A program made the position numbers and the translations under genes. DNA of 64,000 nt from Thermodesulfobacteriota bacterium (GTDB lineage: Bacteria > Desulfobacterota > GWC2-55-46). Position 1 is the stretch's first letter, and each line of letters begins with the position of its first letter. The notes under the pieces were generated by a model, which saw only the letters and a program-made list of their open reading frames with translations, ran no database searches and had not been told where the DNA came from. The stretch covers positions 756,744-820,743 of the forward strand of contig CP129479.1 of NCBI GenBank assembly GCA_030583865.1. The letters are read 5' to 3'. Shown here one piece after another: positions 26,383 through 51,632 of this stretch.

Positions 26383-26459
26383 TGGTCGGGGCGAGAGGAT
26401 TCGAACCTCCGGCCCCCGCGTCCCGAACGCGGTGCTCTACCAGGCTGAGCCACGCCCCG
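26383..26459 (-). tRNA. tRNA-Pro (anticodon CGG), island attachment gene
   Basis: 77 bases including an encoded CCA. On the minus strand, the acceptor arms CGGGGCG/CGCCCCG pair fully, discriminator A. The D arm GCTC-AGCCTGGTA-GAGC, anticodon arm CCGCG-TTCGGGA-CGCGG and T arm GGAGG-TTCGAAT-CCTCT are complete. The loop places CGG at 34-36, reading CCG codons. The 5' 39 bases are part of the 43-bp repeat marking the island. The gene's native 5' flank now lies 25 kb away, and the leftward integrase gene ends 21 bases upstream of it. Confidence 0.97.
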
Positions 26460-26463
26460 ATTT
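26421..26463. repeat. Left island attachment site (43-bp direct repeat)
   Basis: Identical over 43 bases, in the same orientation, to 51317-51359. It covers the tRNA-Pro sequence from the anticodon loop to the 5' end plus four flanking bases. Together with the adjacent integrase this marks the left end of an integrated element. Confidence 0.93.
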
Positions 26464-26480: not shown

Positions 26481-27572
26481 TTACGGCCTCGAAAAACGCC
26501 CCTGAATCACATTTTCGGAAGTTGTACCGCAATTTTGCCGCAATTCCGAAAAGCCCAATCCAAAATCCAGCTTGTCTACCGACTCCCTCAGGTCTTCCTT
26601 AACCAGATTAACATAAATCATTGTCGTCTCGATGTCAAGATGACCAGCGAGCTTCATGATCTTCTGGACAGGCACGTTTTTCCGGGCGAGCTGGGTACAA
26701 AAGGTATGCCGGAGGGAATGTATGTCCGCATCCGTGATTCCGGCCCTCTTATAGCATACCTTGAGGTTCCGAAGCAAATTATTTTTCCTCGGTTTCCCCA
26801 TCTCGTTCGGGAAGACGTACCCGCTCGTGCCGGCCACCCTGTCCCTCTGGATCAGCAGGGCATTATAGGCGTCCTCGTTCAGCGGAACCGTCCGGGGCTG
26901 ATAGTTCTTCGTGTGATAGTTATACTCAGGCTTGTTCCTGACGTAAACCATCTTGTCCTCGAAATCTATATCGACCCATTCCAGCATCACGAGCTCCATC
27001 TTCCTCAGCCCCAAATTGATCCCCGCGACGATAAACGCCCACATGGAGTCAGTGGCCAGGGCCAGAAGCGTCCTTATCTCGTGATCCCGGAGCCAGCGGG
27101 GAAGCCTTTTGGTCTTAACCTTGTAGAACTTGACCTCTTTTACAGGGTTCTCGACCAGGTACTTCTTTGAGACCGCGTACTTGAGCATGCTCCGTATATC
27201 CGAGAGCTCCCGGTTTACCGTATTCTCAGAGACCCTGGCCTTCCTGGATCGCTTATAGGCTTCGATCACCGACGGGGTGATCTTTTCCAGGAATTCAATT
27301 CTGGATATATGCTGCCGGAAGTGGTCCATCGACAGCAGCATCCGGACATAGCCATTATGCGAAGCGTGGTCTTTGAAATACGGCAGGAACTCGCGCATGA
27401 ATTCCGAGATACTTATCTTGCTCGCGAACCCCAGACCATGGCGTTCCTTGCGGAGCTTCATATCCGCAATCCATGATTCCGCGTGACGCTTAGAGCTGAA
27501 CCGCCTGGTTCTGCGGACCCTATTAATCATTACGCTTGCTTCATATGAGCCCTTTTTGAACCTCACGCCCAT
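26481..27572 (-). CDS. Tyrosine recombinase (island integrase)
   Basis: 363 residues. A SAM-like core-binding domain (about 55-160) precedes the catalytic domain (170-340). Catalytic residues: Arg in N-L-G-L-R-K-M-E-L, Lys in the beta hairpin around T-K-N-Y-Q-P-R-T, H-S-L-R-H-T-F (HxxR), G-H-L-D-I-E-T-T, and nucleophile Tyr in M-I-Y-V-N. A short N-terminal R-R-T-R-R-F-S-S-K arm-binding-like segment is present. Its 3' end is 21 bases from the tRNA-Pro gene and 17 bases from the repeat, the normal place for the integrase acting on this site. Its start overlaps the stop of the small HTH gene upstream (ATG at 27572), implying an operon. Confidence 0.92.
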   Translation of the reverse strand: MGVRFKKGSYEASVMINRVRRTRRFSSKRHAESWIADMKLRKERHGLGFASKISISEFMREFLPYFKDHASHNGYVRMLLSMDHFRQHISRIEFLEKITPSVIEAYKRSRKARVSENTVNRELSDIRSMLKYAVSKKYLVENPVKEVKFYKVKTKRLPRWLRDHEIRTLLALATDSMWAFIVAGINLGLRKMELVMLEWVDIDFEDKMVYVRNKPEYNYHTKNYQPRTVPLNEDAYNALLIQRDRVAGTSGYVFPNEMGKPRKNNLLRNLKVCYKRAGITDADIHSLRHTFCTQLARKNVPVQKIMKLAGHLDIETTMIYVNLVKEDLRESVDKLDFGLGFSELRQNCGTTSENVIQGRFSRP

Positions 27573-28429: not shown

Positions 28430-28461
28430 GCTTTTTGAACAAGGCATTGCCTTTAGAAATA

Positions 28462-28491
28462 TTGACAATTCAATGCTAATAGGATTAGAAT
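28462..28491 (+). promoter_or_regulatory. Promoter of the second integrase
   Basis: TTGACA (28462-28467) and TAGAAT (28486-28491) with an 18-base spacer. It diverges from the XRE promoter, the -35 boxes being 32 bases apart. Confidence 0.55.
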
Positions 28492-28550
28492 ATAGGTATT
28501 GGATGGAAAATACCCTTAAAATTGATGCTGATATATGTAATGGGTGCGCC

Positions 28551-35137: not shown

Positions 35138-35143
35138 GCAGGA

Positions 35144-37630
35144 ATGCCTGAGGTCGGCTATAAGCATATTTTTTTGAGTGATGATTACTTCGATCGCTTA
35201 AATTATACGCGTCCTCCGAGGCGATATGAAGGCAAGTCTATCCCAGAAAGAGACGTGTCTCTGCACAGTCGATTTCTAAGAAGAAGTCTGAACCAGGCCT
35301 GGGAGCAGGCCCTGAGGACTGCCGAGCAGCGAAAGGCAGTTGCACTTCCGACACGAACCGGGATTTATCTTGAGTTCCGTAGCGATCCAGGCATCGATCT
35401 TGTCACGAAGAGCTTGGAAGATAGGAAACAAGGCATTCGGCTGTTATCAGTAGCAGACCGGCAAATAGAAGGTGAAGACGAACCGGCAACTTTTGCGACC
35501 GTATTTGTGCCCGCGAATAAACAAGGGCATTTTTTGAGGAAAGTTGAGAAGTATCAAAATGAGCAAACCCGTAAAGGTAAGCCTAAGAATCGACCTTTGA
35601 TAGACAGTATTGCTGATATTCGTTTGGCAATACTCTCGTCTTTTTGGCAGGATACTGCCGCTATGCCGGATGAGGAAGCGGCTTGGTGTGAAGCATGGAT
35701 TCGCGTCGAAGCTGGTCAGGCTATGGATGCCGAGGGTCGATTTCGTGGATTACTTAGAGAATTTGATATCGAGGCATCCGAAGGAGCACTGGAGTTTCCA
35801 GAGAGGACTGTCATCCAAATATTCGCAAATGGCGAGCAGTTAGCAAATTTGCTGGAGGCAAGCGACGAAATTGCCGAGTTTAGATTGGCAAAGGAAACAG
35901 CTGCATTCTGGTTAGATCTACCGAATGTGGATCAAGCCCAGGCCGTGCAAGATCTATTGGAACGACTGGATGTGGTGGATACGGGTGTTGTTGTGTGTCT
36001 TCTTGACACAGGTGTTAATAATGGTCATCCGCTTATCCAACCTGTGTTGAACAATGATGATTGCCACTCAGTAGAATCGGCTTGGGGCGTGGATGATCAC
36101 GATCGGCATGGAACGCTTATGGCGGGAGTGTCAGCATTTGGCGATTTGCAGGACATCCTAGCCTCGGGCAGACGTGTGCGTGTAACACATAGATTGGAAT
36201 CGGCCAAGATCCTGCCTCGCTTCGGCCAGAACCCACATGATCTATACGGGTTTGTTACGGCACAGGGCATCAGCCGAGCCGAGATACAGGCTCCAGATCG
36301 TCGCAGAATCATTTGTATGGCGGTTTCGTCCACTGATGACCGTGATCGTGGTCGACCATCATCGTGGTCAGGAGAAATCGATAAATTAGCTTCTGGAGCT
36401 GAAGACGATAATCGCCGCCTTATTATTCTGGCCGCTGGAAATACTATCCACCCTGATGAATGGCAAAACTATCCAAATGCCACTTTGACAAATGAAGTTC
36501 ACGATCCTGGCCAAGCGTGGAATGCTCTGACCGTAGGAGCTTGGACACAAAAGACCGTAATTCAGGACCCAGCATTCGCGGATTACATGCCAGTGGCTCC
36601 AGCTGGCTCCATTTCGCCATTCACAAGCACATCGCTAACATGGGAGCAGAAGTGGCCAGTAAAACCTGACCTTTTGATGGAGGGTGGAAATGCCGCCGCT
36701 GACACAAATGGTGACTGCTCAGACCTCGATGACCTTAGTTTGGTTTCTACGCATTATCAGCCAATAAGCCGTCTTTTCTCGGGCCATAACATGACCAGTG
36801 CAGCAACTGCTCTCGCAGCTCGCATGGCCGCTCGCCTTCAAGCTGCTTATCCTGAAGCCTGGCCTGAAACAATTCGGGCTTTAATGGTTCATTCTGCCGA
36901 ATGGACTCCAGCAATGCGTGAGCGTTTCCTTGATGATGAATCTAAAATTAGTTACGGCAAACTCCTTCGCATCTGTGGTTACGGTGTGCCGAATCTTGAG
37001 CGTGCTCTGCGATGTGCTACGAATAGTCTGACCCTAGTCGCTGAGCGAGAACTACAACCATATGACAAGGAAGGCAATAATTTTAAGACTCGTGATATGC
37101 ATATTCATGAGTTGCCATGGCCGCAAGGTGTGTTACTTGGACTTGGTGAAGCCCAGATAATGATGCGCGTTACGCTCTCGTATTTTATAGAACCCGGTCC
37201 CGGCCAAATTGGCTGGCGTGATAGATACAGGTATGCTTCTCATGGATTAAGATTTGAGGTGAATTCACCTGGTGAGAGCCGTGATGAGTTACTTATTCGT
37301 ATAAACAAGGCTGCCAGGGAAGAAGGTGAATCCCCTGAAACTACGAGCGCGAGTGAACGATGGAAGATCGGCGCGACTGCCAGAGACCATGGGTCTATCC
37401 ATTCGGATATCTGGTTCGGAAACGCTGCAACTATCGCCGGCTCTAACCTCATTGGAGTGTATCCGGTGGGTGGCTGGTGGCGCGAGCGTACACATCTTGG
37501 CCGATGGAATTGGAGGACTCGGTACTCTCTCATAGTGTCACTGCATACAGCTGAACAGAATGTTGACATTTACACGCCAGTCGCTACGCAAGTAGGAATC
37601 GTAACGCCGGTTGAGATCGAAATCGGATAA
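35144..37630 (+). CDS. Subtilisin-like S8 serine protease, IetS-like (IetAS defence pair)
   Basis: 828 residues. An N-terminal domain of about 270 residues without a signal peptide suggests a cytoplasmic protease. The S8 catalytic triad is Asp near 288 (L-L-D-T-G-V), His near 322 (D-R-H-G-T-L-M-A-G) and Ser near 552 (S-G-H-N-M-T-S-A-A-T), all with normal surroundings, so it should be active. The C-terminal ~230 residues are beta-rich and unassigned. The partner AAA ATPase gene is 6 bases upstream and hsdR starts 18 bases downstream, so all five genes read as one operon. How the protease is held inactive before infection is not visible. Confidence 0.82.
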   Translation: MPEVGYKHIFLSDDYFDRLNYTRPPRRYEGKSIPERDVSLHSRFLRRSLNQAWEQALRTAEQRKAVALPTRTGIYLEFRSDPGIDLVTKSLEDRKQGIRLLSVADRQIEGEDEPATFATVFVPANKQGHFLRKVEKYQNEQTRKGKPKNRPLIDSIADIRLAILSSFWQDTAAMPDEEAAWCEAWIRVEAGQAMDAEGRFRGLLREFDIEASEGALEFPERTVIQIFANGEQLANLLEASDEIAEFRLAKETAAFWLDLPNVDQAQAVQDLLERLDVVDTGVVVCLLDTGVNNGHPLIQPVLNNDDCHSVESAWGVDDHDRHGTLMAGVSAFGDLQDILASGRRVRVTHRLESAKILPRFGQNPHDLYGFVTAQGISRAEIQAPDRRRIICMAVSSTDDRDRGRPSSWSGEIDKLASGAEDDNRRLIILAAGNTIHPDEWQNYPNATLTNEVHDPGQAWNALTVGAWTQKTVIQDPAFADYMPVAPAGSISPFTSTSLTWEQKWPVKPDLLMEGGNAAADTNGDCSDLDDLSLVSTHYQPISRLFSGHNMTSAATALAARMAARLQAAYPEAWPETIRALMVHSAEWTPAMRERFLDDESKISYGKLLRICGYGVPNLERALRCATNSLTLVAERELQPYDKEGNNFKTRDMHIHELPWPQGVLLGLGEAQIMMRVTLSYFIEPGPGQIGWRDRYRYASHGLRFEVNSPGESRDELLIRINKAAREEGESPETTSASERWKIGATARDHGSIHSDIWFGNAATIAGSNLIGVYPVGGWWRERTHLGRWNWRTRYSLIVSLHTAEQNVDIYTPVATQVGIVTPVEIEIG

Positions 37631-37648: not shown

Positions 37649-40600
37649 ATGTCCGGCGAATATAGCGAAGATACACTCGTCCAGCAAACGGCTGCCGAGT
37701 ACCTTGAGCAGAAGCTCGGCTGGGACTCAGTTTACGCGTACAACACCGAGACGTTCGGTCCAGAAGGTACTCTCGGACGCATATCGGACCGCGAGGTGGT
37801 GCTGACGCGCTATTTGAGGGCTAAACTCATAGAGCTAAATCCGGGACTTCCGGATGATGCTTATGAAGATGCCATACGGCAGGTCGTGGCAGTCATGGCG
37901 ACTCAAACACTGTTGTCGACGAACCGAGAAAAATACGAACTGGTCAAGGATGGCGTACAGGTTACCTTTCATAATGAAAAAGGCGAGCGAGTGCGCCAAC
38001 GGCTTCGAGTGTTCGATTTTAATAATGCAGAGGACAACCACTTTCTCTGCGTTCGCGAGCTTTGGGTGCGCGGTGACCTTTACCGCCGCCGGGCTGACAT
38101 CGTCGGGTTTGTTAATGGCCTGCCGTTGCTTTTTATGGAACTTAAGAATATCAGCAAGGACATCCGGGCTGCTTATGAACGGAATTTCAAGGACTACAAG
38201 GACACAGTCCCGCATTTATTCCACCACAACGCCTTCATCGTGCTGGCCAATGGCGTGGATGCGAAATTAGGGTCGGTGACAAGCCGGTTCGAGCACTTTC
38301 ACGAATGGAAGCGCTTGGCCGAAGACCAGCCGGGCGCGGTGGATATGGAGACACTGCTTAAGGGCATCTGCGATAAGCGCAACTTCCTTGACCTGTTGGA
38401 GAATTTCATTGTCTTCGATGACTCTTCCGGCGAGCCGAGAAAGATACTTGCCCGCAACCACCAGTTCCTGGGCGTCAACCGAGCCATTGAGGCGGTGAGT
38501 GACCGTAAGAGCCGCCAGGGTAAACTGGGCGTATTCTGGCATACACAGGGCGCTGGCAAGAGCTATTCGATGGTGATGTTCACGCGGAAGGTCCACCGCA
38601 AGCTCGGTGGCAACTTCACCTTCCTGATCTTGACCGACCGAGAAGACCTGGACACGCAAATCTATAAGACTTTCGCTGGCTGCGGCGTGGTGGACAATGA
38701 CCGCGACCCATGCCGCGCGAGTAGCGGCGATCACCTGAGCCGACTTCTTGCCCAGCACAAATCCCACATCTTCTCGCTTATTCAGAAATTTAATCAGGGC
38801 GTAACGCCTGACCAGAGCTATACGCAGAGAGACGATGTTATCGTCATTACTGATGAAGCACACAGGACTCAGTATGGAACACTGGCCCTGAATATGCGGA
38901 ATGCTCTGCCGAACGCTAGTTACATCGGATTCACGGGTACGCCTCTATTCAAGGAAGATGAGATCACGCGGCGCGTTTTCGGCGACTATATCTCGACTTA
39001 CGACTTCCAACGGGCAGTCGAGGACAAGGCCACCGTGCCAATCTACTACGATGCCAGGGGAGACAAGCTTGGCGTGGCCATTGGCGATCTAAATGAAAAG
39101 ATCGCTGAAAAGCTCGAAGAACTGGAAACCGATAATATCGATGTTGAGCAGCGGTTGGAAAGAGAACTCAAACGAGATTACCACATCATTACCGCAGATA
39201 AGCGGTTGAACCAGGTTGCAAGAGATTTTGTCAACCATTACTCGACAGCATGGGAAACTGGCAAGGCGATGCTGGTGTGCATCGACAAGATAACTTGCGT
39301 TCGTATGTACAACCTGATTACCAAGTATTGGGATGAGCGTATCGCTGAATTGACTGCCGGGCTGGGTTCGGCCGCTGATGAGCAGGAGGAAGCATACCGT
39401 CGCCGTCAGATCGAATGGATGCGGGAGACACGGACGGCGGTAGTCGTCAGCGAGGAGCAAGGCGAAGTCGAGAAGTTCCGGCGATGGGACCTGGACATAA
39501 CCCCGCACCGACGGTTGATCAAAGAGGGTATGGATCTGCCGGAGTCCATGAGGCAGAAGCCCCAGTTCCGTAACATGCAGCGCATGGCCCTGGATGAGGC
39601 GTTTAAGGAGGATGAGCATCCCTTCAGAATCGCCATTGTCTGCGCCATGTGGCTGACCGGCTTCGATGTGCCGAGTTTATCGACGCTCTACTTGGATAAG
39701 CCGCTTAAGGCCCACACGCTGATGCAGGCAATTGCCCGCGCGAATAGGGTAAACGAGGGGAAGAATAACGGCCTTGTTGTCGACTATTGCGGCATCCTCA
39801 AGAACTTGCGTAAGGCTCTGGCTACATTCGCAGGCCAGCCGGACAGTGGTCATGGCGAGGGCGGTGAAACAGAGCCGGCCAAACCCGAAGAAGAACTCCT
39901 GGCAGATCTGGTGGAGGCCATCTCGTTCGTTCGGAGTTTCCTGACTGAGCGCGGCGCCTCGCTCGATGACATTATCACGAAAACCGGCTTCGAGCGTAAC
40001 GCGGCCATTGTGGCCACAAAGGAAGCGGCTAACGAGACTGACGAGACGCGCAAACGATTTGAGGTGATGTGCCGGGAGGTTTGCAAGAAGTTCAAATCGT
40101 GCATCAATGTCAAGGGGATCAATGCGCATCGTGTGGAGTACGATGCTATTAACGTCGTCTACAAGAGCCTCCAGCAGGACCGGGAGAAGGCTGACATCAC
40201 CGACATCATTCGCCAGTTGCACCGGGTGGTAGACGAGGCCATCGAGACGCAGCCGGAACGAACTGGTGATGAATCCGAGGTCTACGACATCAGCAAGATC
40301 GATTTCGAACGATTGCGGAAGGAATTTGAGCGCAGCCCGGCCAAACGCACGACCGTCCAGAACCTCAAACAGGCCATTGAACGGAGGCTTCAGCGGCTCC
40401 TGGAGCAGAACCCGCTCCGCACGGACTTCCAAAGGCATTACGAAGATATCGTGGTCGAGTATAACCGAGAGAAGGATCGGGTGACGATTGAAAGGACTTT
40501 CGAGGCGCTAATTCGCTTTTTCAACGAACTCGATGAAGAAGAAAGCCGGGCTGTTCGTGAGGGTCTCGATGAGGAATCACTGGCAATCTTCGATCTCCTG

Positions 40601-40918
40601 AAGAAGCGGGACTTGAATTCCTCTGACATCAAGCGAATCAAGGCTGTTGCAGTCGAACTGCTCGCGAGGTTGAAGGCTGAGAAGCTGCGAATAGACCACT
40701 GGCGGGACAAAGAATCTACTCGTGATGCAGTGCGAATTGCCATCCGTGATTTTCTTTGGCGCGATGATACCGGGCTACCTGTGAGTAGTTATACCGAGGA
40801 TGAGGTGAACGCGAAGGCAGAAGAGGTTTTTAGACATATTTATCGAGTTTACCCGACGCTACCGTCTCCATATTACACTGAACAATACGAAATCGACAGT
40901 AATTGCTGTCGTAAGTAG
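37649..40918 (+). CDS. hsdR: Type I restriction-modification system, restriction subunit HsdR
   Basis: 1089 residues, normal for HsdR. The N-terminal PD-(D/E)xK nuclease region (about 60-190) has L-L-F-M-E-L-K-N near 160. The two helicase domains include Walker A T-Q-G-A-G-K-S near 300-305, D-E-A-H near 402-405, T-G-T-P-L, and motif VI-like Q-A-I-A-R-A-N-R-V. The C-terminal part is helical and contacts the methylase core. It cleaves unmodified DNA after ATP-driven translocation. It is separated from hsdM/hsdS by the IetAS-like pair, yet spacing keeps it in the same transcription unit. Confidence 0.95.
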   Translation: MSGEYSEDTLVQQTAAEYLEQKLGWDSVYAYNTETFGPEGTLGRISDREVVLTRYLRAKLIELNPGLPDDAYEDAIRQVVAVMATQTLLSTNREKYELVKDGVQVTFHNEKGERVRQRLRVFDFNNAEDNHFLCVRELWVRGDLYRRRADIVGFVNGLPLLFMELKNISKDIRAAYERNFKDYKDTVPHLFHHNAFIVLANGVDAKLGSVTSRFEHFHEWKRLAEDQPGAVDMETLLKGICDKRNFLDLLENFIVFDDSSGEPRKILARNHQFLGVNRAIEAVSDRKSRQGKLGVFWHTQGAGKSYSMVMFTRKVHRKLGGNFTFLILTDREDLDTQIYKTFAGCGVVDNDRDPCRASSGDHLSRLLAQHKSHIFSLIQKFNQGVTPDQSYTQRDDVIVITDEAHRTQYGTLALNMRNALPNASYIGFTGTPLFKEDEITRRVFGDYISTYDFQRAVEDKATVPIYYDARGDKLGVAIGDLNEKIAEKLEELETDNIDVEQRLERELKRDYHIITADKRLNQVARDFVNHYSTAWETGKAMLVCIDKITCVRMYNLITKYWDERIAELTAGLGSAADEQEEAYRRRQIEWMRETRTAVVVSEEQGEVEKFRRWDLDITPHRRLIKEGMDLPESMRQKPQFRNMQRMALDEAFKEDEHPFRIAIVCAMWLTGFDVPSLSTLYLDKPLKAHTLMQAIARANRVNEGKNNGLVVDYCGILKNLRKALATFAGQPDSGHGEGGETEPAKPEEELLADLVEAISFVRSFLTERGASLDDIITKTGFERNAAIVATKEAANETDETRKRFEVMCREVCKKFKSCINVKGINAHRVEYDAINVVYKSLQQDREKADITDIIRQLHRVVDEAIETQPERTGDESEVYDISKIDFERLRKEFERSPAKRTTVQNLKQAIERRLQRLLEQNPLRTDFQRHYEDIVVEYNREKDRVTIERTFEALIRFFNELDEEESRAVREGLDEESLAIFDLLKKRDLNSSDIKRIKAVAVELLARLKAEKLRIDHWRDKESTRDAVRIAIRDFLWRDDTGLPVSSYTEDEVNAKAEEVFRHIYRVYPTLPSPYYTEQYEIDSNCCRK

Positions 40919-41198: not shown

Positions 41199-41291
41199 GT
41201 GCTAAAGCATTGTAGCCTTTCAGAAAATATTCATAAAGGCGCTCTGAAAAAACAATTTTTGCCTGTGGGGTTGATCTCGGAGGGGTTGATT

Positions 41292-42740
41292 ATGGATTTG
41301 AATAGAAAACTTATATTTATTAGTCATGCGAATCCGGAAGATAATGAATTTACATTATGGCTGGTTTCGCGCTTGAGTGCATTGGGTTATCTAGTATGGT
41401 CCGATCTAACAAAGCTTTTGGGTGCAGAAGTTTTTTGGAAGAACATTGAAGATGCCATACGTAATCATGCGGCTAAAGTGATTGTTGTTTTGACGCGCTC
41501 GGCACAGCAAAAAGATGGAGTACTTGATGAGGTTAATCTCGCTGTTTCAATTGAACGAACTATGAGCTATCCGCATTTCGTAGTTCCTATTCGGTTAGAT
41601 GACCTGCCTTTCCACGATATCAGTCCTAATCTGGCGCGAAAAAATATTATCGATTTCAGTAAGGATTGGGCAGAAGGTTTCGGACAGCTTTTGAAGGTAT
41701 TAGAGCGCGACAAGGTTGGAAGAGAACAGGATTTATCTACACAGCAAATTGCTATATGGATCGAAAACATCCGTGCCGGATATCAAAAAGTAGTTGCAGA
41801 GCCGCAGCAATTAATGACGAACTATGTTGAATTTATGCAATTACCTGAGAATCTGAATTTTTATAAAGTGGGCTTGCCTAACGATGTGCTACGACTCAGG
41901 TTTCAATCTTTTACATATCCACTGTATCATTATCAAGGCATGGTGGCAACCTTCGCCAGTAGTGAGGATATGAATGATTTTTTGGCGCAAGATCAATACG
42001 CTGCACTCGCGTATCAAATACCCGTATTATCAATTCTTAATAATGAATCTCATAATCTGTCTGAGCTTAAAAGACCGGAAGCAGTACATATGTTGTCGTT
42101 TTTAATCAGGACTGCTTGGGATAAAACAATGGAGATGAAAGGGCTGCGTGCGTATGAGCTGGCTAGCGGCCGAAAAGCCTGGTTTGCTGAAAATGGATAT
42201 AGGTCTAATAACGTCATAAAATATTTTGATCTGAATGGCATAGAGCGAAGAAAAAGTTTGGTTGGCCGTAGTGAAAAAAGAAAGGCTTTCTGGCATTTTG
42301 CTATAGACGGATGGCCAACCATAGGCAAGGAACCTACGCTTATGCTTAGGCCACATGTCGTATTTACGGAAGATGGAAAAACACAATTTTCTGTTCAGTC
42401 AAGAATGCACCGGCTTCGCCGAGGATTTTGCAGAAATTGGTGGAATCCTCGCTGGCGGGATCTCATATTGGCTTATACAACGATGTTATCTGATGAATAC
42501 CAAACAATTAAATTAAAGGTGGGTTCAGAACAATTCTTTTTTATAAATTCCAGACCCGCTTTGTTCAATTCGCCTGTTTCAGTCAGTGGTTTATCTAAAA
42601 CTTATGTCCCGGTGGATGAGACCGATAGTCAACTTGATGAATTGTCAGAAGGATTCGGATGGGACATTGATGAAGAAAATGACGACCTGACGCTTGATAC
42701 TGATGAGTCAATTGAAGCTGAAAATAGGGACAAGCCATAA
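41292..42740 (+). CDS. TIR-APAZ protein of a SPARTA defence system
   Basis: 482 residues from ATG 41292 (GGAGGGG 7-8 bases upstream). The N-terminal TIR domain (about 5-140) has F-I-S-H-A-N near 9-14, V-W-S-D near 35-38, and a V-V-L-T-R-S strand followed by D-E-V-N-L-A with Glu near 80, the expected NADase glutamate. The rest (about 160-460) fits the APAZ region that replaces the N/PAZ part of Argonaute. Its stop overlaps the start of the short Argonaute gene (TAATG). In known SPARTA systems the heterodimer uses a guide to sense foreign DNA, oligomerises and depletes NAD(P)+, killing the invaded cell. The APAZ identity is inferred from context and length. Confidence 0.88.
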   Translation: MDLNRKLIFISHANPEDNEFTLWLVSRLSALGYLVWSDLTKLLGAEVFWKNIEDAIRNHAAKVIVVLTRSAQQKDGVLDEVNLAVSIERTMSYPHFVVPIRLDDLPFHDISPNLARKNIIDFSKDWAEGFGQLLKVLERDKVGREQDLSTQQIAIWIENIRAGYQKVVAEPQQLMTNYVEFMQLPENLNFYKVGLPNDVLRLRFQSFTYPLYHYQGMVATFASSEDMNDFLAQDQYAALAYQIPVLSILNNESHNLSELKRPEAVHMLSFLIRTAWDKTMEMKGLRAYELASGRKAWFAENGYRSNNVIKYFDLNGIERRKSLVGRSEKRKAFWHFAIDGWPTIGKEPTLMLRPHVVFTEDGKTQFSVQSRMHRLRRGFCRNWWNPRWRDLILAYTTMLSDEYQTIKLKVGSEQFFFINSRPALFNSPVSVSGLSKTYVPVDETDSQLDELSEGFGWDIDEENDDLTLDTDESIEAENRDKP

Positions 42741-44266
42741 TGACTAAAGATTTGAATTTGTATTATATTGAGGAGCCAAGATTGGAATTTGGGCATGGTC
42801 AAGCCATGGAGGATCCCAAAGACGGTTTGATGTTTTTTGGTCCATTAAAAGATGCTCGGAGCCCTGTAGAAATAAGGGTGGGCGTAATAGGTTCTAAAGA
42901 GGGAATCAACAGATATCGTAAGTGGGTTGCTAAAATAAATAGTTATATTCCTGCTCTGAAGACGGAATCGGCACATCATACGGCTTATCCTGGTTTTAAA
43001 ACGATTTTTGGATGTAAATGGTCTGACTCGCCGATCTGTGAATTGACTATTACGGAAGAGGAAATGCTGGGCCATCTGTATTTATCGGATCGGCATGAAG
43101 CAATTTTTAAGACAGTTGGACTTTTCGAGAATCGGATTAGGCGCTACATCAGGGAAGAAGATGCGCATATCGACCTTTGGTTTATAATAATTCCCGAGGA
43201 AATTTACAAATTGGGGCGGCCAAAATCTGTTGTGTCGAAAGACTTGCGTGTTTTATCGGCCATCAATATGACTGCAAAAAAAGCACGACAGATTCAAAAG
43301 CAGCCATCCTTATTGTTTGCCGAGGAAAACGAAGCTGCAGAATATTATAAATACGAACTCAATTTTCATAACCAACTGAAGGCAAGACTACTGGATACTA
43401 AAGCAGTATTGCAGATTGTACGGGAAACCAGTCTTTCACCAGAGGAGTTTGTCGTAGATGAGCGGCCCTTACGTAGAGTTCAAGATCCAGCTACACTAGC
43501 ATGGAATCTTACAACGACGACTTTCTTCAAAGCCTCTGGCCGCCCTTGGAAGCTTGCCAATGTCCGAGAAGGAGTTTGTTATGTTGGCATTGTTTTCAAA
43601 AGAGATATGAAATCGCGTGATGCAAATAATGCGTGTTGCGGAGCTCAGATGTTTTTGGATTCTGGGGATGGATTAGTATTCAAGGGAGCTGTTGGCCCAT
43701 GGTACTCAGATTCCACTAAGGAATTCCATCTCCCAAAGCAAAAAGCATACGAACTCATGAGTATGGTTGTGGATGCTTATACAAGAGAACACGGATTTGA
43801 ACCAAAGGAACTTTTTATTCATGGACGGACACGGTTCAGTGAAGGAGAGTGGAGAGGATTCCAAGAGGCTGTCCCTAAGGTAACCAATCTCGTAGGAGTG
43901 CGCATACGAGATGACAAGAATTTAAAAATGTATGGGCCTGGGCAGGAAGCAGTTCTCCGAGGGACTGCTTTTCTTAAAACAAATAGGATGGGATTTTTAT
44001 GGACCAGAGGATATATACCCCGTTTACAGACATATCCAGGGCGCGAAGTACCTAATCCGTTATCTATCGAGATTTGTAGAGGTAATGCAGAACTGAAGCA
44101 AGTTATGAGAGACATAATAGGGCTTACAAAGGTCAATTTCAATGCGTGTATTTATGCTGATGGATATCCAGTAACACTACGATTTGCAGACCATGTTGGG
44201 GAAATTTTGACTTCAACGCCAATCGCCCATGAGCTCCCGCCTTTGCCGTTTAAGCATTACATATAG
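42740..44266 (+). CDS. Short prokaryotic Argonaute (MID-PIWI) of a SPARTA system
   Basis: 508 residues, the usual length for short pAgo of the TIR-APAZ clade (~500). The N-terminal half corresponds to MID, the C-terminal half (about 270-500) to PIWI. Where active PIWI domains have the first catalytic Asp (G-I-D), this one has G-I-V-F near 283-286, and the later acidic positions are not retained, so it should bind but not cut its target, as in other SPARTA Argonautes. It is coupled by a one-base start/stop overlap to the TIR-APAZ gene. No Cas4, nuclease or helicase partner is inserted between them. A+T-rich compared with the hsd operon. Confidence 0.9.
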   Translation: MTKDLNLYYIEEPRLEFGHGQAMEDPKDGLMFFGPLKDARSPVEIRVGVIGSKEGINRYRKWVAKINSYIPALKTESAHHTAYPGFKTIFGCKWSDSPICELTITEEEMLGHLYLSDRHEAIFKTVGLFENRIRRYIREEDAHIDLWFIIIPEEIYKLGRPKSVVSKDLRVLSAINMTAKKARQIQKQPSLLFAEENEAAEYYKYELNFHNQLKARLLDTKAVLQIVRETSLSPEEFVVDERPLRRVQDPATLAWNLTTTTFFKASGRPWKLANVREGVCYVGIVFKRDMKSRDANNACCGAQMFLDSGDGLVFKGAVGPWYSDSTKEFHLPKQKAYELMSMVVDAYTREHGFEPKELFIHGRTRFSEGEWRGFQEAVPKVTNLVGVRIRDDKNLKMYGPGQEAVLRGTAFLKTNRMGFLWTRGYIPRLQTYPGREVPNPLSIEICRGNAELKQVMRDIIGLTKVNFNACIYADGYPVTLRFADHVGEILTSTPIAHELPPLPFKHYI

Positions 44267-44408
44267 TTCTCTAAAATATAGTATATCTTTCATCACGGAA
44301 TCTATCTTCACCGAGCCTATTAATCGTAGGAGATAATCGTAAGCTTCCCTTAAAAGTAGACATGTGATAAGTAGAGCTTTCTGGCAAAATACAGCCGGGA
44401 GGTTCGAA

Positions 44409-44675
44409 ATGAAGAAGTCGCGTTTTTCTGAATCACAGATTGTAGCGGTGCTCAAGGAGGCAGAATCCGGGGTTCCCGTTCAGGAGGTCTGCCGCAAGCA
44501 CGGCATCTCGGATGCCACCTACTACAACTGGAAGTCGAAGTACGGCGGCATGGAGGTCTCGGACCTCCGGCGCATGAAGGAGCTGGAAGCTGAGAACTCC
44601 AAGCTCAAGCGCATGTACGCCGACATGGCTCTTGAGAACCGGGCATTGAAGGACCTGATTGAAAAAAAGCTCTGA
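44409..44675 (+). CDS. IS3-family transposase OrfA
   Basis: 88 residues: an HTH of the transposase_8 type (F-S-E-S-Q-I-V-A-V-L-K-E-A near 6-18, then C-R-K-H-G-I-S-D-A-T-Y-Y-N-W) followed by a leucine-zipper-like helix (about 50-88). It binds the element's ends. Its 3' end has the A-rich run GAAAAAAAGC before TGA; a -1 slip there would fuse it to OrfB. Confidence 0.9.
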   Translation: MKKSRFSESQIVAVLKEAESGVPVQEVCRKHGISDATYYNWKSKYGGMEVSDLRRMKELEAENSKLKRMYADMALENRALKDLIEKKL

Positions 44676-45520
44676 GGCCGCCCGAGAAACGCGAAGCTGT
44701 CACTTATCTAGTCGCCGAGTACAAATTGTCGGTACAGAGCAGCTGCCTTTGTATTGGCATATCGCGGGCGGCCTATTACAGAGCGCCGGTCTACGCCGAC
44801 CGGGATGCAGAGGTCATCAAGGCTCTGAACGCCCTGATTGAACGACATCCCAGGTGGGGCTTCTGGAAGTGCCACAAGGCCCTGAGGCGCAAAGGCCACT
44901 CCTGGAATCATAAGCGCGTCTATCGTGTTTACTGCGCCTTGAGGCTCAACCAGAAGCGCAGGAGCAAGAGAAGGCTGCCTAAGCGCTTTAAACAGCCATT
45001 GTCGATACCAAGGCAGCCGAACCAGGTCTGGAGTGCGGATTTCATGTGCGACAACCTCTATACCGGCAGCCGTTTTCGTACCTTTAATGTTATTGACGAC
45101 TTCAACCGGGAGTGCCTTGCGGTTGAGATAGATACATCGATAACAGGCAGGAGGCTCACCCGGGTTTTCGAGCGCCTCAGGTCTGAGAGGGGTTTGCCGG
45201 AAGTACTGCGGGTCGACAACGGCCCTGAGTTTTTAAGCGGCGACTTTGTTGCCTGGGCCGAACAGGCGGGGATGGCTATCCAGTACATCCAGCCTGGGCA
45301 GCCGAATCAGAACGCTTATGTCGAGAGATTCAATAGGACGTACCGCGAGGAGTTTTTGAGCTTGTACCTGTTCCGTAATCTTCATGAGGTGCGGGAAGGA
45401 ACCCACGCATGGAGGATCGACTACAATGAGCGCCGTCCCCATGATGCCTTGGGGGACCTTACGCCAGAGGAGTATCGTCAAAACAACGCCGGAAACTCTA
45501 CTTTAAAACTGTCTACTTGA
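44666..45520 (+). CDS. IS3-family transposase OrfB (DDE catalytic part)
   Basis: The frame that joins OrfA by a -1 shift at the A-run (44662-44669) reads on with A-L-R-P-P-E-K-R-E-A-V-T and includes the 264-codon segment starting at an internal GTG/ATG-like codon at 44726. HTH_21 and rve domains are present: catalytic Asp in S-A-D-F-M, second Asp in V-D-N-G-P-E-F, Glu in Y-V-E-R-F-N-R-T-Y-R-E-E. All three are intact, so the element may still move. The start given is the approximate shift point; in vivo it is probably made as an OrfAB fusion. Confidence 0.88.
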   Translation, partial: KALRPPEKREAVTYLVAEYKLSVQSSCLCIGISRAAYYRAPVYADRDAEVIKALNALIERHPRWGFWKCHKALRRKGHSWNHKRVYRVYCALRLNQKRRSKRRLPKRFKQPLSIPRQPNQVWSADFMCDNLYTGSRFRTFNVIDDFNRECLAVEIDTSITGRRLTRVFERLRSERGLPEVLRVDNGPEFLSGDFVAWAEQAGMAIQYIQPGQPNQNAYVERFNRTYREEFLSLYLFRNLHEVREGTHAWRIDYNERRPHDALGDLTPEEYRQNNAGNSTLKLST

Positions 45521-45642
45521 CGGGGAAGCTTACGTAATGCCTTAACCGGCTTATCTGCTCTCCTAGGCGGAATCACGCTCACTTGGCAGATGCTACTGAA
45601 TTATTTTTTCCAAAATTTGAATCTTTAATTGCGGAGTAGGCA

Positions 45643-46800
45643 ATGTTTATTGTAGCCAAATGCGGAGGTGAGACACAAAGGTCCATTGACATTTTAGGGC
45701 TCGGTGCTGAGTACGAAAGAAACTACCTTTCTAAAATCATGCCTGGCATATCAGTCCTTACAACCCGTTTCGGATATATGGGGTTCATCTGTTGGGCTAT
45801 CGATGGTGGCATCGACCCGAAGTCCGACAGCTTCCACACGCTCGAATATGCCCTCGCTAAGACAGAATATAATCTCAAAAAGGACAGGTACAAGGGTGTC
45901 AGGAATATCAAGCGGGGTATGGAGCCGCCATATTATCAGCAGTCGGTCTTTGGTGATTACAGGAACACCATGATGGGCATGGGAGTGCTGACCAAGAAGA
46001 ACGAACTGACCGATGAAGGAGTACGGCTCGCCAAAGAATTTCAGAAAAGCCGCAATAAACTCTTGCCCCCATCGAAAATCCGTGGGACAACAGCCAGAAA
46101 AGGTTTTGACGTTAAAAAGAGCCTTTTACGACTTTCAGATAGCGAAAAGAAGCTTTACAAGAAAATATTCTTTTCTGGTGTGAATGGCAATAAAGAGACC
46201 GAAGGGAATGCACGGACAAGAAGGGCCCACAGGGCTCTATACGGCAACTTGATTCGTGAGCTAGATAATCTTTCATCTGGCGATGCCGACGGCGTGGCTG
46301 ACGACAAGGCTGATTATGCGGCTATTGAGGGATTGAGAGGATGTAGTGGCGGTAGCAGAAAATACGCCTTGGCGAACGAGATGTCCCATTATCTCCGTGC
46401 AGTCTACTGCAGCATCACGGCGCTACATGATATTGTGAGCTACTTGAAAGATGACAAGGTGAAGTCAGGAGCTAAAAGTCTCAGCCTGACACAGGCTACG
46501 GGCATCAAGAGGGTCAGAAAGCACCTCGAGGAGGCCAGAAAGATAGCTGCTACTTTGAAGAAAAGGCGCGCAGGATCGCGGGCCAATGAGCTTATTGAGC
46601 TGTGCTCGGTGTCGTCGATTGAAGAGCTTCTGCGCAGATTAATCAAAAGAAATATGGATATCAAGGGTGAAAGGGCCTGGGTTGATTTGAAAAACAGCAT
46701 GATCGTACTCAACCCGGCAGATCCATTCGTGCCCAGAAAGGCTGCAGCCTTTGGGTACAGACTATTGCCATATGCAAGCCTCATGAAGGACCTGCATTAA
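45643..46800 (+). CDS. Uncharacterised first protein of a phospholipase-D/helicase operon
   Basis: 385 residues. No catalytic motif is recognisable. The N-terminal 60 residues (Y-L-S-K-I-M-P-G-I-S-V-L-T-T-R-F-G-Y near 29-46, then F-I-C-W-A-I-D) resemble the P-G-x-S-x-x-x-T-R-x-x-Y signature seen in some uncharacterised families (DUF6361-like) found beside DNA-repair or defence helicases; this is a weak resemblance. The middle is strongly basic and the C-terminal half helical, with C-x-S-x-T-A-L-H-D-I-V near 275. It is the first of three tightly packed genes (gap of 2, then a 4-base overlap), so it is probably a sensor, adaptor or DNA-binding part of the same machine. GGAGTAGG precedes ATG. 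Confidence 0.75.
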   Translation: MFIVAKCGGETQRSIDILGLGAEYERNYLSKIMPGISVLTTRFGYMGFICWAIDGGIDPKSDSFHTLEYALAKTEYNLKKDRYKGVRNIKRGMEPPYYQQSVFGDYRNTMMGMGVLTKKNELTDEGVRLAKEFQKSRNKLLPPSKIRGTTARKGFDVKKSLLRLSDSEKKLYKKIFFSGVNGNKETEGNARTRRAHRALYGNLIRELDNLSSGDADGVADDKADYAAIEGLRGCSGGSRKYALANEMSHYLRAVYCSITALHDIVSYLKDDKVKSGAKSLSLTQATGIKRVRKHLEEARKIAATLKKRRAGSRANELIELCSVSSIEELLRRLIKRNMDIKGERAWVDLKNSMIVLNPADPFVPRKAAAFGYRLLPYASLMKDLH

Positions 46801-46802
46801 TT

Positions 46803-48581
46803 ATGCCTTCGAAAGACCTGAAAAGGGTTGCCCTGGCGCACCCCAAAAAAACAGAAAAGGATGCGTTCCCGAGGGAGCGGATTGGACTGCTCAAACATTT
46901 TTTTGAGCTGTCGAAAGATGCCTCGCCAAAGCTTCTTCTGGTCACGACCTTTCAGCTGGATGGAGAGTTTCTTGAAGACGAGGTGTTTGGGCAGGTGCCT
47001 GAGGTATGCAAGACTTTACTAATATATTCACCATTTTCAACAAACAGCAATTTCCAGGTCAAGGCAGAGCGCAGCAATATACGTCTGACTAGAGCCCGCT
47101 CGAGGGTCTTTCATCCGAAGTTCATTCTTGCCATCTCGGGAACCGACCTCCTTGTAGGTGTCGGGAGCGCCAATCTCACAAGAGGCGGCTGGGGCGGCGT
47201 TAACCAGGAGCTATTTCACTTCTTTGTCAATAGCAGGGATTTTTACTTAACAAAACACATGCCGACGCTTGATGGCACGATTCTAAGGTCTTGCCATGAA
47301 TACCTTGACAAGCTGGCCGCTGAACTGCACCCCAGCTCATATCGAGACAGAGAATCAATAGAAGACATGCAGAAAGTACTCGGGAATGTAGACACAAAGA
47401 CTAAAGCGCACGATGAGCGAAAGCTTTTATACAATTATTCCAAGAGCCTTCTCGATGTGCTGAAGGACATCCCCAGAAAACAGCTTATAAGCATACACAT
47501 ATTCTCCCCCATTCACTTCGACCAGACTGATTCAGAAGACCAGGATGAGTTCTGCGAGAACGACTACAAGCTCTTCGACTATTTTCGCGGTCTTTTCATG
47601 GGGAAAAACAAGCCTGACATATCATTCTATTCATCAAACGATGTCGCAATGAACTTTTTAGGTCAACGCGGGGTGAAATTTTTCAAAAATAACGTAAGCA
47701 ACAGGTCTCATCTGAAGCTGGTCGCGCTTCTGACAACAAAGCACGCCTACATACTTTCGGGTTCTGCCAACTTTTCGGTAAATGCCTTTTTGAAAACGCC
47801 CTCCTCCGGCGGCAATTCCGAGTTGATGATTCTCGAGCGAAGGAATTTGAAAGAATGGAATGCCATAAAGCGCTCGCTTGTCGGCGAATCTCCCAAGGAG
47901 CAGATAGGTGCGCCAATAAAATTAAGAGCTAAGCCTGAAGACTCGCCGGAATTCGAGATATGGCAGATCGATATTGAAAAAACCAAAAGCGGCCACCAGG
48001 CACATATCTACTGCAACCCTTTCATCAAGGGTTGTCACTCAGTGCAGTTGCTATATAACTCTGGCCACAAAAAGATTGTCATCTCGGTCTCCAAACCATT
48101 GGAGACATTCAATTGCATAGGAAAGCAATGGCAGGAGCTAATCGAGGACGGACCGTTATTTGTCGTGTCTCGCAAGGGGCATAAAGACTTTGTTATACCA
48201 GTAAACTATGACCGAGGCGACTGTTTTGGGGAACCCATGACCGACATGGACCGGGAATATGCCGACCTTTTTTCCTTCATCGGGCTTAGGTGGAGTAGGC
48301 GTAACGCCATCGACGACCCGAGACAGACTGGACCAGATATCGGCGAGCTAGATGATCGTGAACCAGAGAACGTTTTCCAGTCTCAGAACGACAGATTCTA
48401 TCATGAATGGAAGCATATCGACAGGAAGCTCCGGCAGGTCGACGAGGAGTTGAAAAATGTTTACCGTGAAAAGATCAAAGATTTTGTTGACCTGAACAAG
48501 GCACGCCATAGCGATAGCCGGAAGGACGCGCTCTTGACCGAGGTGCAGATAAAATTCATAGAAAACAGGATGCTCAAGTGA
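46803..48581 (+). CDS. Phospholipase-D-like (HKD) nuclease-type protein
   Basis: 592 residues. Two PLD half-sites are visible: F-H-P-K-F near 103-107 followed by G-S-A-N-L-T near 121-126, and S-H-L-K-L near 301-305 followed by S-G-S-A-N-F-S near 322-328. Each provides the HxK...(G)SxN set of a PLD active site, and both His and Lys are present, so phosphodiesterase activity is plausible. No signal peptide, so it is cytoplasmic; with a helicase next to it the substrate is more likely nucleic acid than lipid. The C-terminal ~200 residues are not assigned; the last 60 form a charged helix. Its end overlaps the helicase start by 4 bases (GTGA). Confidence 0.82.
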   Translation: MPSKDLKRVALAHPKKTEKDAFPRERIGLLKHFFELSKDASPKLLLVTTFQLDGEFLEDEVFGQVPEVCKTLLIYSPFSTNSNFQVKAERSNIRLTRARSRVFHPKFILAISGTDLLVGVGSANLTRGGWGGVNQELFHFFVNSRDFYLTKHMPTLDGTILRSCHEYLDKLAAELHPSSYRDRESIEDMQKVLGNVDTKTKAHDERKLLYNYSKSLLDVLKDIPRKQLISIHIFSPIHFDQTDSEDQDEFCENDYKLFDYFRGLFMGKNKPDISFYSSNDVAMNFLGQRGVKFFKNNVSNRSHLKLVALLTTKHAYILSGSANFSVNAFLKTPSSGGNSELMILERRNLKEWNAIKRSLVGESPKEQIGAPIKLRAKPEDSPEFEIWQIDIEKTKSGHQAHIYCNPFIKGCHSVQLLYNSGHKKIVISVSKPLETFNCIGKQWQELIEDGPLFVVSRKGHKDFVIPVNYDRGDCFGEPMTDMDREYADLFSFIGLRWSRRNAIDDPRQTGPDIGELDDREPENVFQSQNDRFYHEWKHIDRKLRQVDEELKNVYREKIKDFVDLNKARHSDSRKDALLTEVQIKFIENRMLK

Positions 48582-50881
48582 GCAGGAAGTGCATATTTAA
48601 GACTGAGGACTTCGAGTATCAGACCCTCACGGCTAACTACTTGGTCAAAGCGCTGCTCGCGAAGTCAAGGACTAAACGAATTCGGGGCGCTGTTCTCGGT
48701 GACGGCGTAGGCATGGGCAAGACGTATACGAGCCTTTTTACTGCTTTCTCGTACATGTCGAATGCGAAGCCCTACCTTAAAGATAGCAGGTTGAACAGAA
48801 AACACAAGACGTCCCTTTTGATAGTCGCGCCTAATGATATAGTCATGCAAAAATGGATTTCGGAAATAGAGCCTTACGCGAAGCCCGGAAACTTCAGCTC
48901 ATACATAAAGAGGCTCGGCAATGGGCTCAAAATAAAGGACAAGCTCCTGGCAATAACACAGAACATCAATACGACTGAAAATCTCGGAAAAAAGTATTGC
49001 AAGCCCAACTGGTCAGTCATAGTGACGACGCGAGGCAAGCTTAAAAGACTTGACGATAATCGGCTTCAGATACTCAAGACCGTTACGGGCTTCATAATAT
49101 TCGACGAAGCCCATCGCATGAAAGAGCCATCTTTTAAGCAGGCTTTTGAAAATAATAGATACCTGAGTGACCTTGTTTTAGGAAGAAACCATCCAAAGTT
49201 TCTTTTTCTGACAGCGACCCCGTTCCAGAAAAATATTGGACAGATGAAAACACTTTTTTCCGGATATTTCCTCGGCAGGGAGGATTGGGTTTTTAAGGAT
49301 TTGAACGATTATGTTGTGGATGTCGGCAGCTACTTGAGGGGGGCACAGGAAAAAAGTGGCAAGTTGAAGGTTAAAAAAAGGGAGCTTGAAAAGGAGCTCA
49401 GGCAATTTTTTGTCATAAACAAGAGGCTGAAAAAACTCGAAGAGCGAAGGGAAGAGTATGTCAATGGTGCCCTGTGCAGTGACCGTAGCGCGAAATGCTA
49501 CGTGCACCTGTTCAACGAAGACCCAAAGCTTGAGAAAAAATGGTACGAATTCCAGACGAAGTACCTATCGTACCGTTTTGAATCAAGGAATGGGCGAAAG
49601 AGTCGCGTTGAGCAGGACCTGACAAGGTTTACGAGCTTTGTAACCGAAAAGCACAAGAAGATAGTCGGCGATAACTACCCTCTAAAATGCGAAATGCTGG
49701 GGCGTATTATCGCCAGGCGCTTTCTGCAGGACCGCAAAAAATGGAACAGGAAGTTCATTATATTCTGTGACATGCTAAACGACAATGTGAGTCATAGGGA
49801 TGGGAAGCTGCACGAGAGATTGAGGGACGCATGCGTGAGGACCATCGAGGGCTTTTTTGGGAAAACCCGAAAGGGCAAAGTCCCGCCGCCCAACCTAGAG
49901 CGCGTGATCGCAAGTGTCGTATTAAGAACACGAGTCAAAGGGTTCAGGGATGTTTTCTATTCTACGAGAAACGAGCGTCAACTGAGAGCCTCATGGACAA
50001 GTAAGATAGATGAATGGCAAAAGAGATTTAACAACTCTCTCCTGTATTCTTTTTACGGGGAGGATATAAAGGCCTACTATGAGCGCCTCTTCAGGGAAAT
50101 GATCGGGCAGTATGCATGCATCGAGTTCCTGAGGAAAAAGATGCTCTCGGGCAGCATGATCCCCAAAAAAAGAAAAGCCTATATCAAGTCTCTTTTCGGA
50201 AGCGAAGGGATAGGAGATAAGAGCAGGTGGTTACTATATACCGAGGAAGACCTTAATGACCTCTGGGCTCTATATTATGGAAAACATCAGAAATCCGTGG
50301 TGCGCAGAAAAAGCCTTATTGAGAATACGAAGCGAGATATTGAGAGAATCTTTAAAAAAGAGCTAAAAAAAGTGCTCAGGCAATGGGACGAAGCTCTCCC
50401 CGGCAAGGAACTGGTATCTTGCTATAACGGGTCGAGCAAGAATGCGCAGGATCTGAAACGGTTCCAGTGGCCGCTGGAACCGTGCGCCCTGGTCCTGAGC
50501 AAGGCCTGCGAGGAGGGCGTTGATCTTCAGGCGTTTACAAGCGGTGTCATACATTATGATTTTGACTGGAGCCCGGGAAGAATGGTGCAACGGGAGGGTC
50601 GGGTTGACAGGATCGGCAGGGCCATTGATAAGAAGGGGGTGCACAAGATTTTTGCGGAAAAGAAGTTCAAGTCCCATCTCGACGACAGGCACCTACAATT
50701 TCACTATCTTGTCATGCCCAACACATACGATGAGCGCAAGTTCGTAAGAATGACCGAGCGTAGAAAACTGTTCAAGTTGCTTGTCCCTGTCAACTTGGAA
50801 GATGAGTATAAGTCTTTCCACACACAGAAGAATAGTCGAGATATTACAGGCCTGTCATTCGATCTGAGCGTTAGGCCCTAG
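48578..50881 (+). CDS. SNF2/DEAH-type helicase of the phospholipase-D operon
   Basis: 767 residues, superfamily 2 helicase. Walker A G-V-G-M-G-K-T near 44-50, motif Ia L-L-I-V-A-P-N near 84-90, motif II F-D-E-A-H-R near 174-179, motif III L-T-A-T-P-F near 211-216. The second domain has V-L-S-K-A-C-E-E-G-V-D-L-Q near 637-649 (motif V) and Q-R-E-G-R-V-D-R-I-G-R near 668-678 (motif VI). The QREGRVDRIGR form and the layout resemble SNF2/HepA-like translocases. Long charged inserts lie between the domains (about 250-600). GTG start. It is the last gene of the operon and would supply DNA loading or translocation for the PLD-like protein. Confidence 0.85.
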   Translation: MSRKCIFKTEDFEYQTLTANYLVKALLAKSRTKRIRGAVLGDGVGMGKTYTSLFTAFSYMSNAKPYLKDSRLNRKHKTSLLIVAPNDIVMQKWISEIEPYAKPGNFSSYIKRLGNGLKIKDKLLAITQNINTTENLGKKYCKPNWSVIVTTRGKLKRLDDNRLQILKTVTGFIIFDEAHRMKEPSFKQAFENNRYLSDLVLGRNHPKFLFLTATPFQKNIGQMKTLFSGYFLGREDWVFKDLNDYVVDVGSYLRGAQEKSGKLKVKKRELEKELRQFFVINKRLKKLEERREEYVNGALCSDRSAKCYVHLFNEDPKLEKKWYEFQTKYLSYRFESRNGRKSRVEQDLTRFTSFVTEKHKKIVGDNYPLKCEMLGRIIARRFLQDRKKWNRKFIIFCDMLNDNVSHRDGKLHERLRDACVRTIEGFFGKTRKGKVPPPNLERVIASVVLRTRVKGFRDVFYSTRNERQLRASWTSKIDEWQKRFNNSLLYSFYGEDIKAYYERLFREMIGQYACIEFLRKKMLSGSMIPKKRKAYIKSLFGSEGIGDKSRWLLYTEEDLNDLWALYYGKHQKSVVRRKSLIENTKRDIERIFKKELKKVLRQWDEALPGKELVSCYNGSSKNAQDLKRFQWPLEPCALVLSKACEEGVDLQAFTSGVIHYDFDWSPGRMVQREGRVDRIGRAIDKKGVHKIFAEKKFKSHLDDRHLQFHYLVMPNTYDERKFVRMTERRKLFKLLVPVNLEDEYKSFHTQKNSRDITGLSFDLSVRP

Positions 50882-51316: not shown

Positions 51317-51359
51317 TCCCGAACGCGGTGCTCTACCAGGCTGAGCCACGCCCCGATTT
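51317..51359. repeat. Right island attachment site (43-bp direct repeat, partial tRNA-Pro)
   Basis: A perfect copy of 26421-26463. It contains only the 5' 39 bases of tRNA-Pro(CGG), as read on the minus strand, and stops in the anticodon arm, so it is not a functional tRNA. A family A repeat starts two bases beyond it. Confidence 0.93.
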
Positions 51360-51360
51360 A

Positions 51361-51504
51361 AGGCAACCACTAAAAGTTGATCTTTTCCCCGGACTCTTTG
51401 TCAGGCCGGGAATAAAAATGCTCACATATTAACATATATGCTCCGCTTTTTATTCCCGACCTTCCTTGATTGCGGGAAAAATCTCTGATTTTTAGAGGTT
51501 GCCT
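51361..51504. repeat. Family A interspersed repeat, copy 4 (full length)
   Basis: The left end AGGCAACCACTAAAAGTTGATC and right end GATTTTTAGAGGTTGCCT are terminal inverted repeats. The inner arms GGCCGGGAATAAAAA and TTTTTATTCCCG are also inverted. It adjoins the right attachment site, so before the island entered it lay two bases from the 5' end of the tRNA-Pro repeat, i.e. within that tRNA gene's promoter region. Confidence 0.82.
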
Positions 51505-51632
51505 TATTATTGTACCTGCAGAAACAAAAACGAGCTTCGCTTACGCAAAGCCCTCCAGAACTTCAACATGAAGAAATTAACACTTCTTTCAGGCTGAATC
51601 CAGCATTTTTTTTAAGGCTTCGCGCCAATGCG

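What the first reader, a model, noticed from the sequence alone, without database searches (positions are those of the whole stretch)
45643..50881. Three-gene operon: unknown protein + PLD-like nuclease + SNF2-like helicase, candidate undescribed defence system
The three genes are separated by 2 bases and then overlap by 4, so they form one translational unit. The second has two intact HxK...SxN phospholipase-D half-sites, the third a complete SF2 helicase motif set, and the first no recognisable catalytic motif. All are cytoplasmic and sit in an island otherwise full of defence systems. DISARM also couples a helicase with a PLD-like protein, but I see no methyltransferase or DUF1998 partner here, so this is not DISARM as usually defined. 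I infer a DNA-targeting system in which the first protein is the sensor or adaptor.
Basis: partly seen in the sequence, partly recalled or inferred. Interest (0 to 1): 0.8.

Follow-up and report, generated by a model that had tools for sequence, protein, structure and literature searches.

The report
Divergent Azaca-like three-gene phage-defence operon
Three adjacent bacterial genes (a small unknown protein, a DNA-cutting enzyme of the phospholipase-D fold and a DNA motor) turn out to be a very distant relative of an already named phage-defence system, Azaca, carried on a mobile island packed with other defence genes.

Summary
In detail: three same-strand ORFs (385, 592, 767 aa), 2-base gap then 4-base overlap, two intact HxK...SxN half-sites, complete SF2 motifs. 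The interpretation "candidate undescribed system" is only partly right. In PADLOC each gene hits the same two systems in the same order: ZacA/B/C (Azaca, a named system of unknown mechanism) and PDC-M27A/B/C (unvalidated candidate). In all 13 intact relative loci measured, A (~400 aa), PLD and SNF2 helicase recur in this order with overlaps or near-zero gaps. The "unknown" first protein carries the conserved N-terminal ZacA motif (D-x-LG...PG-x-S-x-L-x-TR-x-x-Y). A helicase tree places gene C in the Azaca/M27 clade (97/98), nearest M27 (85/87); grouping with DISARM DrmD is rejected (p=0.016). Yet it is far from both families (at most ~25% helicase identity, no DUF6361 match, no close homologue in 395 phylum genomes): a divergent lineage of a known kind, with a compact helicase. 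It is the last cargo of a 24.9-kb tRNA-Pro integrative island bounded by 43-bp repeats, absent at the same site in a sister species. Most likely mechanism (inferred): a helicase-gated PLD nuclease attacking phage DNA.

The parts
45643..46800 (+). Gene A: 385-aa ZacA/PDC-M27A-like protein; conserved N-terminal module residues 12-55 (RSIDILGLG...MPGISVLTTRFGYMGFICW); possible winged-helix stretch 109-139 (weak)
   Evidence: PADLOC ZacA 6e-4 (residues 12-55), PDC-M27A 0.007 (residues 285-354); profile of 13 relatives 15.3 bits, best of 3000 shuffles 5.2, E 9e-4 among 1890 ORFs; Pfam wHTH-PRTase_assc 0.0075, below cut-off
46803..48581 (+). Gene B: 592-aa PLD-superfamily nuclease with two HxK...SxN half-sites, ZacB/PDC-M27B-like
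   Evidence: PADLOC PDC-M27B 2e-8, ZacB 3e-8; profile E 5.6e-10 among 1890 ORFs; invariant H104, K106, N124, H303, K305, G320, S321, N323
48578..50881 (+). Gene C: 767-aa SNF2-like SF2 helicase, ZacC/PDC-M27C-like but about 260-430 aa shorter than its relatives
   Evidence: PADLOC best hit PDC-M27C 3e-15, ZacC 1e-12, ahead of BrxH/DrmD/HmaA; tree: with M27 85/87, with Zac+M27 97/98
26421..26463 (.). attL: 43-bp repeat in the 5' half of tRNA-Pro
   Evidence: exact 43-bp direct repeat; tRNA-Pro 26383-26459
51317..51359 (.). attR: second copy of the 43-bp repeat, 435 bp downstream of gene C
   Evidence: joined flanks match one continuous stretch in a sister species, i.e. an empty site
26481..27572 (-). 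tyrosine integrase next to attL (a second one at 28422-29645, + strand)
   Evidence: Pfam Phage_integrase 6e-28 and 5e-39

Best explanation
The trio is a divergent member of a three-gene defence superfamily that also holds Azaca (ZacABC) and the PADLOC candidate PDC-M27, and lies nearer to PDC-M27. Shown here: gene content, order, junctions, catalytic motifs, homology of all three proteins, carriage on a tRNA-integrated defence island. Inferred: protein C, an ATP-driven dsDNA translocase/helicase, patrols or loads on invading DNA; protein A, through its conserved N-terminal module and a possible DNA-binding central part, couples C to B or recognises the target; protein B, a tandem PLD nuclease that uses two HKD half-sites and a covalent phosphohistidine, cleaves the DNA once licensed. 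There is no dedicated methyltransferase, so self/non-self discrimination would rest on DNA state (ends, replication forks, damage), as in Hachiman, rather than on a host mark.
For: All three proteins pick out the same two PADLOC systems in the order A-B-C. A: a profile built without the window scores it above unrelated ORFs and all 3000 shuffles, and the motif alignment is plain to see. B: E 5.6e-10, invariant catalytic residues. C: clade with Zac+M27 97/98; grouping with DrmD (p 0.016) or fused HKD+Snf2 (p 0.020) rejected. Architecture: A-B-C, same strand, -106 to +3 base junctions in 13 of 13 intact loci of the two families; a canonical Azaca locus is annotated DUF6361 / phospholipase D family / helicase-related. 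No gene family other than A, B, C recurs in more than 4 of 19 neighbourhoods. Island with integrases, att repeats and an empty site in a sister species. Azaca is listed as a defence system with helicase ZacC (PMC12278908) and a PLD domain (PMC10952713). Helicase-as-sensor with nuclease-as-effector is shown for Hachiman (PMC12278908).
Against: Helicase identity to any relative is at most about 25%; DUF6361 does not match A; in A only the N-terminal 45-70 residues align significantly, the rest rests on position and motifs. C has a very long branch (2.33), and a sister position outside Zac+M27 is not rejected (p 0.18). No nuclease, helicase or antiphage activity tested. The mechanism of Azaca itself is listed as unknown (PMC10482375, PMC12926258).
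Confidence: 0.8

Rival explanations
1. A distinct, undescribed defence system that merely converged on the unknown + PLD + SNF2 layout.
For: No close homologue in 395 phylum genomes, plasmids or viral contigs; helicase identity at most 25%; DUF6361 not matched.
Against: All three genes independently hit the same systems in the same order; shared N-terminal motif in A; C inside the Zac/M27 clade.
Confidence: 0.12
2. A DISARM, Dpd or BREX fragment: a DrmD/DpdE/BrxH-type helicase with a DrmC-like PLD protein left from a larger locus.
For: C also hits DrmD, BrxHI and DpdE profiles at 3e-12 to 7e-12; DISARM and Dpd have PLD proteins (PMC12458937).
Against: M27C and ZacC score better; DrmD grouping rejected p 0.016; no DrmA, DrmB/DUF1998 or deazaguanine genes beside it; DrmC does not hit B.
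Confidence: 0.04
3. A DNA-repair or housekeeping helicase-nuclease operon without a defence role.
For: PLD and SNF2 proteins also act in repair; B weakly hits Tyr-DNA phosphodiesterase (0.0015, below cut-off).
Against: Absent from the five other genomes of the genus and patchy in the phylum; lies on a mobile island full of defence genes.
Confidence: 0.04

Closest known systems
PDC-M27 (PADLOC-DB putative defence candidate, genes A, B, C)
   Same: Same order and gene kinds; helicase groups with it 85/87; B keeps the S-x-N-[LI]-T-R-[AG]-G-W sequence of M27B-type proteins; C best hit 3e-15.
   Different: M27C-type relatives here have 1177-1198 aa against 767; A matches M27A only at E 0.007 over 70 residues; M27 itself is an unvalidated candidate.
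Azaca (ZacABC; Millman et al. 2022 as cited in PMC10952713)
   Same: Three-gene order, ZacA-type protein / PLD / SNF2-like helicase, short junctions; shared N-terminal motif in A.
   Different: Window A does not match DUF6361 (PF19888); C lacks about 260-330 aa, chiefly between the two helicase lobes; identity about 20%.
DISARM (DrmD helicase, DrmC PLD)
   Same: SNF2-like helicase and PLD nuclease in one locus.
   Different: No own methyltransferase, DrmA or DrmB/DUF1998; helicase grouping rejected p 0.016.
Fused HKD+Snf2 antiphage proteins (PADLOC PLD_Helicase, C3a139; NCBIfam NF042964)
   Same: PLD and SNF2 activities coupled.
   Different: Fused in one protein, no A component; grouping of C with the L033 example rejected p 0.020.
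Hachiman (HamAB)
   Same: Proposed working principle: a helicase senses DNA state and licenses a nuclease (PMC12278908).
   Different: Different nuclease; analogy of mechanism only, no membership claimed.

Membership tests
Azaca (ZacABC) | First gene is a DUF6361 (PF19888) protein, ZacA model over full length | tested here: not met
   No PF19888 match at E<=0.1, while ZacA relatives score 6e-14 to 8e-71; ZacA model matches residues 12-55 only, 6e-4
Azaca (ZacABC) | Second gene is a ZacB-type tandem PLD protein | tested here: inconclusive
   ZacB 3e-8, catalytic residues intact, but PDC-M27B scores equally
Azaca (ZacABC) | Third gene is a ZacC-type SNF2-like helicase | tested here: inconclusive
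   ZacC 1e-12; in the Zac+M27 clade 97/98 but outside the Zac branch itself (100/100)
Azaca (ZacABC) | Order A-B-C, same strand, overlapping or touching junctions | tested here: met
   Window +2 and -4; 13 of 13 intact relatives -106 to +3
PDC-M27 | M27A, M27B, M27C models matched in order | tested here: inconclusive
   M27A 0.007, M27B 2e-8, M27C 3e-15; tree 85/87 with M27C, below the starred level
DISARM | DrmA helicase, DrmB DUF1998, DNA methyltransferase, DrmC | tested here: not met
   None adjacent; DrmD grouping rejected
Azaca or PDC-M27 | Protection against phage | not testable with these tools
   needs plaque assays

The most novel reading that the evidence does not exclude
A third, compact lineage of an Azaca/PDC-M27 superfamily, hardly visible to present detection models, with a minimal helicase and a reduced adaptor, whose target recognition differs from that of Azaca; the superfamily link also makes the unvalidated PDC-M27 a predicted Azaca-like defence system.
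Probability: 0.5. Interest if true: 0.45.

Novelty: new variant of a known kind. Interest (0 to 1): 0.35.

Why it matters
It turns an apparently orphan operon into a remote member of a named but mechanistically unsolved defence system, and ties Azaca to PDC-M27 by architecture, sequence and a helicase tree. The residues that survive this divergence (the A motif D-x-LG...PG-x-S-x-L-x-TR-x-x-Y, two HKD half-sites, the helicase core) mark what the mechanism probably cannot do without, and the 767-aa helicase suggests that the large insertions of ZacC and M27C are dispensable.

Tried and rejected
Single-protein scans for close relatives: genome contigs, viral contigs and plasmids gave nothing for the window proteins. 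hhalign of A against only two M27A rows was not significant, and in global mode it did not align A. PDB sequence search: nothing for A or B beyond chance. Papers on BREX relatives and YprA helicases were searched for a matching trio: none seen in the passages read. DefenseFinder models and the primary Azaca paper are not available here.

Full report
OBSERVATION. B has two intact HxK...SxN half-sites, C the full SF2 motif set, A no Pfam family above cut-off.

WHAT IT IS. PADLOC gave the key: A hits ZacA (6e-4, residues 12-55) and PDC-M27A (0.007, residues 285-354); B hits PDC-M27B (2e-8) and ZacB (3e-8) and nothing else; C hits PDC-M27C first (3e-15) and ZacC second (1e-12), ahead of BrxH, DrmD, DpdE and HmaA. 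Weak singly for A, these hits agree on two systems and on the order A-B-C. ZacABC is the Azaca system (ZacC named in PMC12278908; PLD domain of Azaca, after Millman et al. 2022, in PMC10952713). PDC entries are putative candidates, mostly without experimental validation (PMC12988326).

RELATIVES. With the ZacA and PDC-M27A models and then an alignment I found relatives in the window's phylum and read their surroundings. In 13 of 13 intact loci measured, A (398-484 aa), B (600-707 aa) and C (1026-1198 aa) follow each other on one strand with junctions from -106 to +3 bases (start codons are mechanical, so the longest overlaps may be overcalled). A Cronobacter plasmid copy is annotated DUF6361 family protein / phospholipase D family protein / helicase-related protein. 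Outside A, B and C no gene family recurs in more than 4 of 19 neighbourhoods, so the core is three genes.

TESTS WITH THE WINDOW LEFT OUT OF THE PROFILE. A: 15.3 bits against 5.2 for the best of 3000 shuffles; E 9e-4 among 1890 ORFs, while the next ORF without the motif has 0.6. An hhalign test against length-matched ORFs also ranks it first among non-members. The alignment shows why: window RSIDILGLGAEYERNYLSKIMPGISVLTTRFGYMGFICW against L085 GVRDEIGFLLLHQ-GYANRFFPGTSVLQTRLRYILFIPW. B: E 5.6e-10 (with a Zac-rich profile the two half-sites give 18.9 bits, best of 3000 shuffles 4.3). C: E 4.5e-21, but other SNF2 helicases score alike, so a tree was made: window C lies with M27C (85/87) inside a Zac+M27 clade (97/98); grouping with DrmD (p 0.016) or with a fused HKD+Snf2 protein (p 0.020) is rejected; a position just outside Zac+M27 is not (p 0.18). 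Window C has a long branch, so its exact place is unsure.

HOW IT DIFFERS. A does not match DUF6361 (nor do the two M27A-type relatives), and beyond its N-terminal module it is aligned only by position and motifs. C is 260-430 aa shorter than its relatives, chiefly in the stretch between the two helicase lobes and, against M27C, at the C-terminus. No close homologue was found in 395 genomes of the phylum. I therefore do not file it as Azaca proper: a defining feature was tested and not met. It is an Azaca/PDC-M27-type system in a wider sense.

SETTING. The operon is the last cargo of a 24.9-kb integrative island: exact 43-bp repeats in tRNA-Pro (26421-26463) and at 51317-51359, two tyrosine integrases by the first, GC 0.36-0.55 inside against about 0.58-0.62 outside, and a sister-species contig that matches the joined flanks continuously (85%). 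Other cargo: HsdM, HsdS, HsdR with IetA/IetS between S and R, and a TIR-APAZ + short pAgo pair, then an IS3-type element.

MECHANISM. Shown: motifs and homology only. Inferred: C translocates on DNA and senses its state, A couples or targets, B cuts. The parallel is Hachiman, where a helicase senses DNA integrity and frees a nuclease (PMC12278908). Azaca's mechanism is listed as unknown (PMC10482375, PMC12926258). I put about 0.8 on the family assignment and about 0.6 on helicase-gated DNA cleavage.

VERDICT. A real and coherent operon; a new divergent variant of a known kind rather than a new system.

Noticed in passing
26421-26463 and 51317-51359: 43-bp att repeats of a 24.9-kb tRNA-Pro integrative island that carries several defence modules; empty site seen in a sister species (G005:C8:173817-174732).
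   Followed up: yes
34166-37630: IetA/IetS-like ATPase and subtilase pair lies between hsdS (32863-34089) and hsdR (37649-40918) of a type I RM operon.
   Followed up: partly
41199-44266: TIR-APAZ plus short pAgo pair directly upstream; in L086 an Azaca-type locus likewise lies directly downstream of a SIR2-APAZ + short pAgo pair.
   Followed up: partly
about 51360-51506: A ~145-bp dispersed repeat with inverted ends (AAGGCAACC...GGTTGCCTT) that occurs in many copies in the genus genomes; MITE-like.
   Followed up: no
L058:9650-13577, L059:2628-6894, L089:7273-11557, L090:5042-9228, L091:7437-11650: Two-gene loci: a 519-586-aa protein with the ZacA N-terminal motif (weak) followed by a 726-911-aa ZacB-like PLD protein, without the helicase; possibly a helicase-free variant of the family.
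   Followed up: partly
44337-45535: IS3-type element with imperfect inverted ends inserted between the pAgo pair and the trio, ending about 107 bp before gene A; it may have replaced the native promoter.
   Followed up: no
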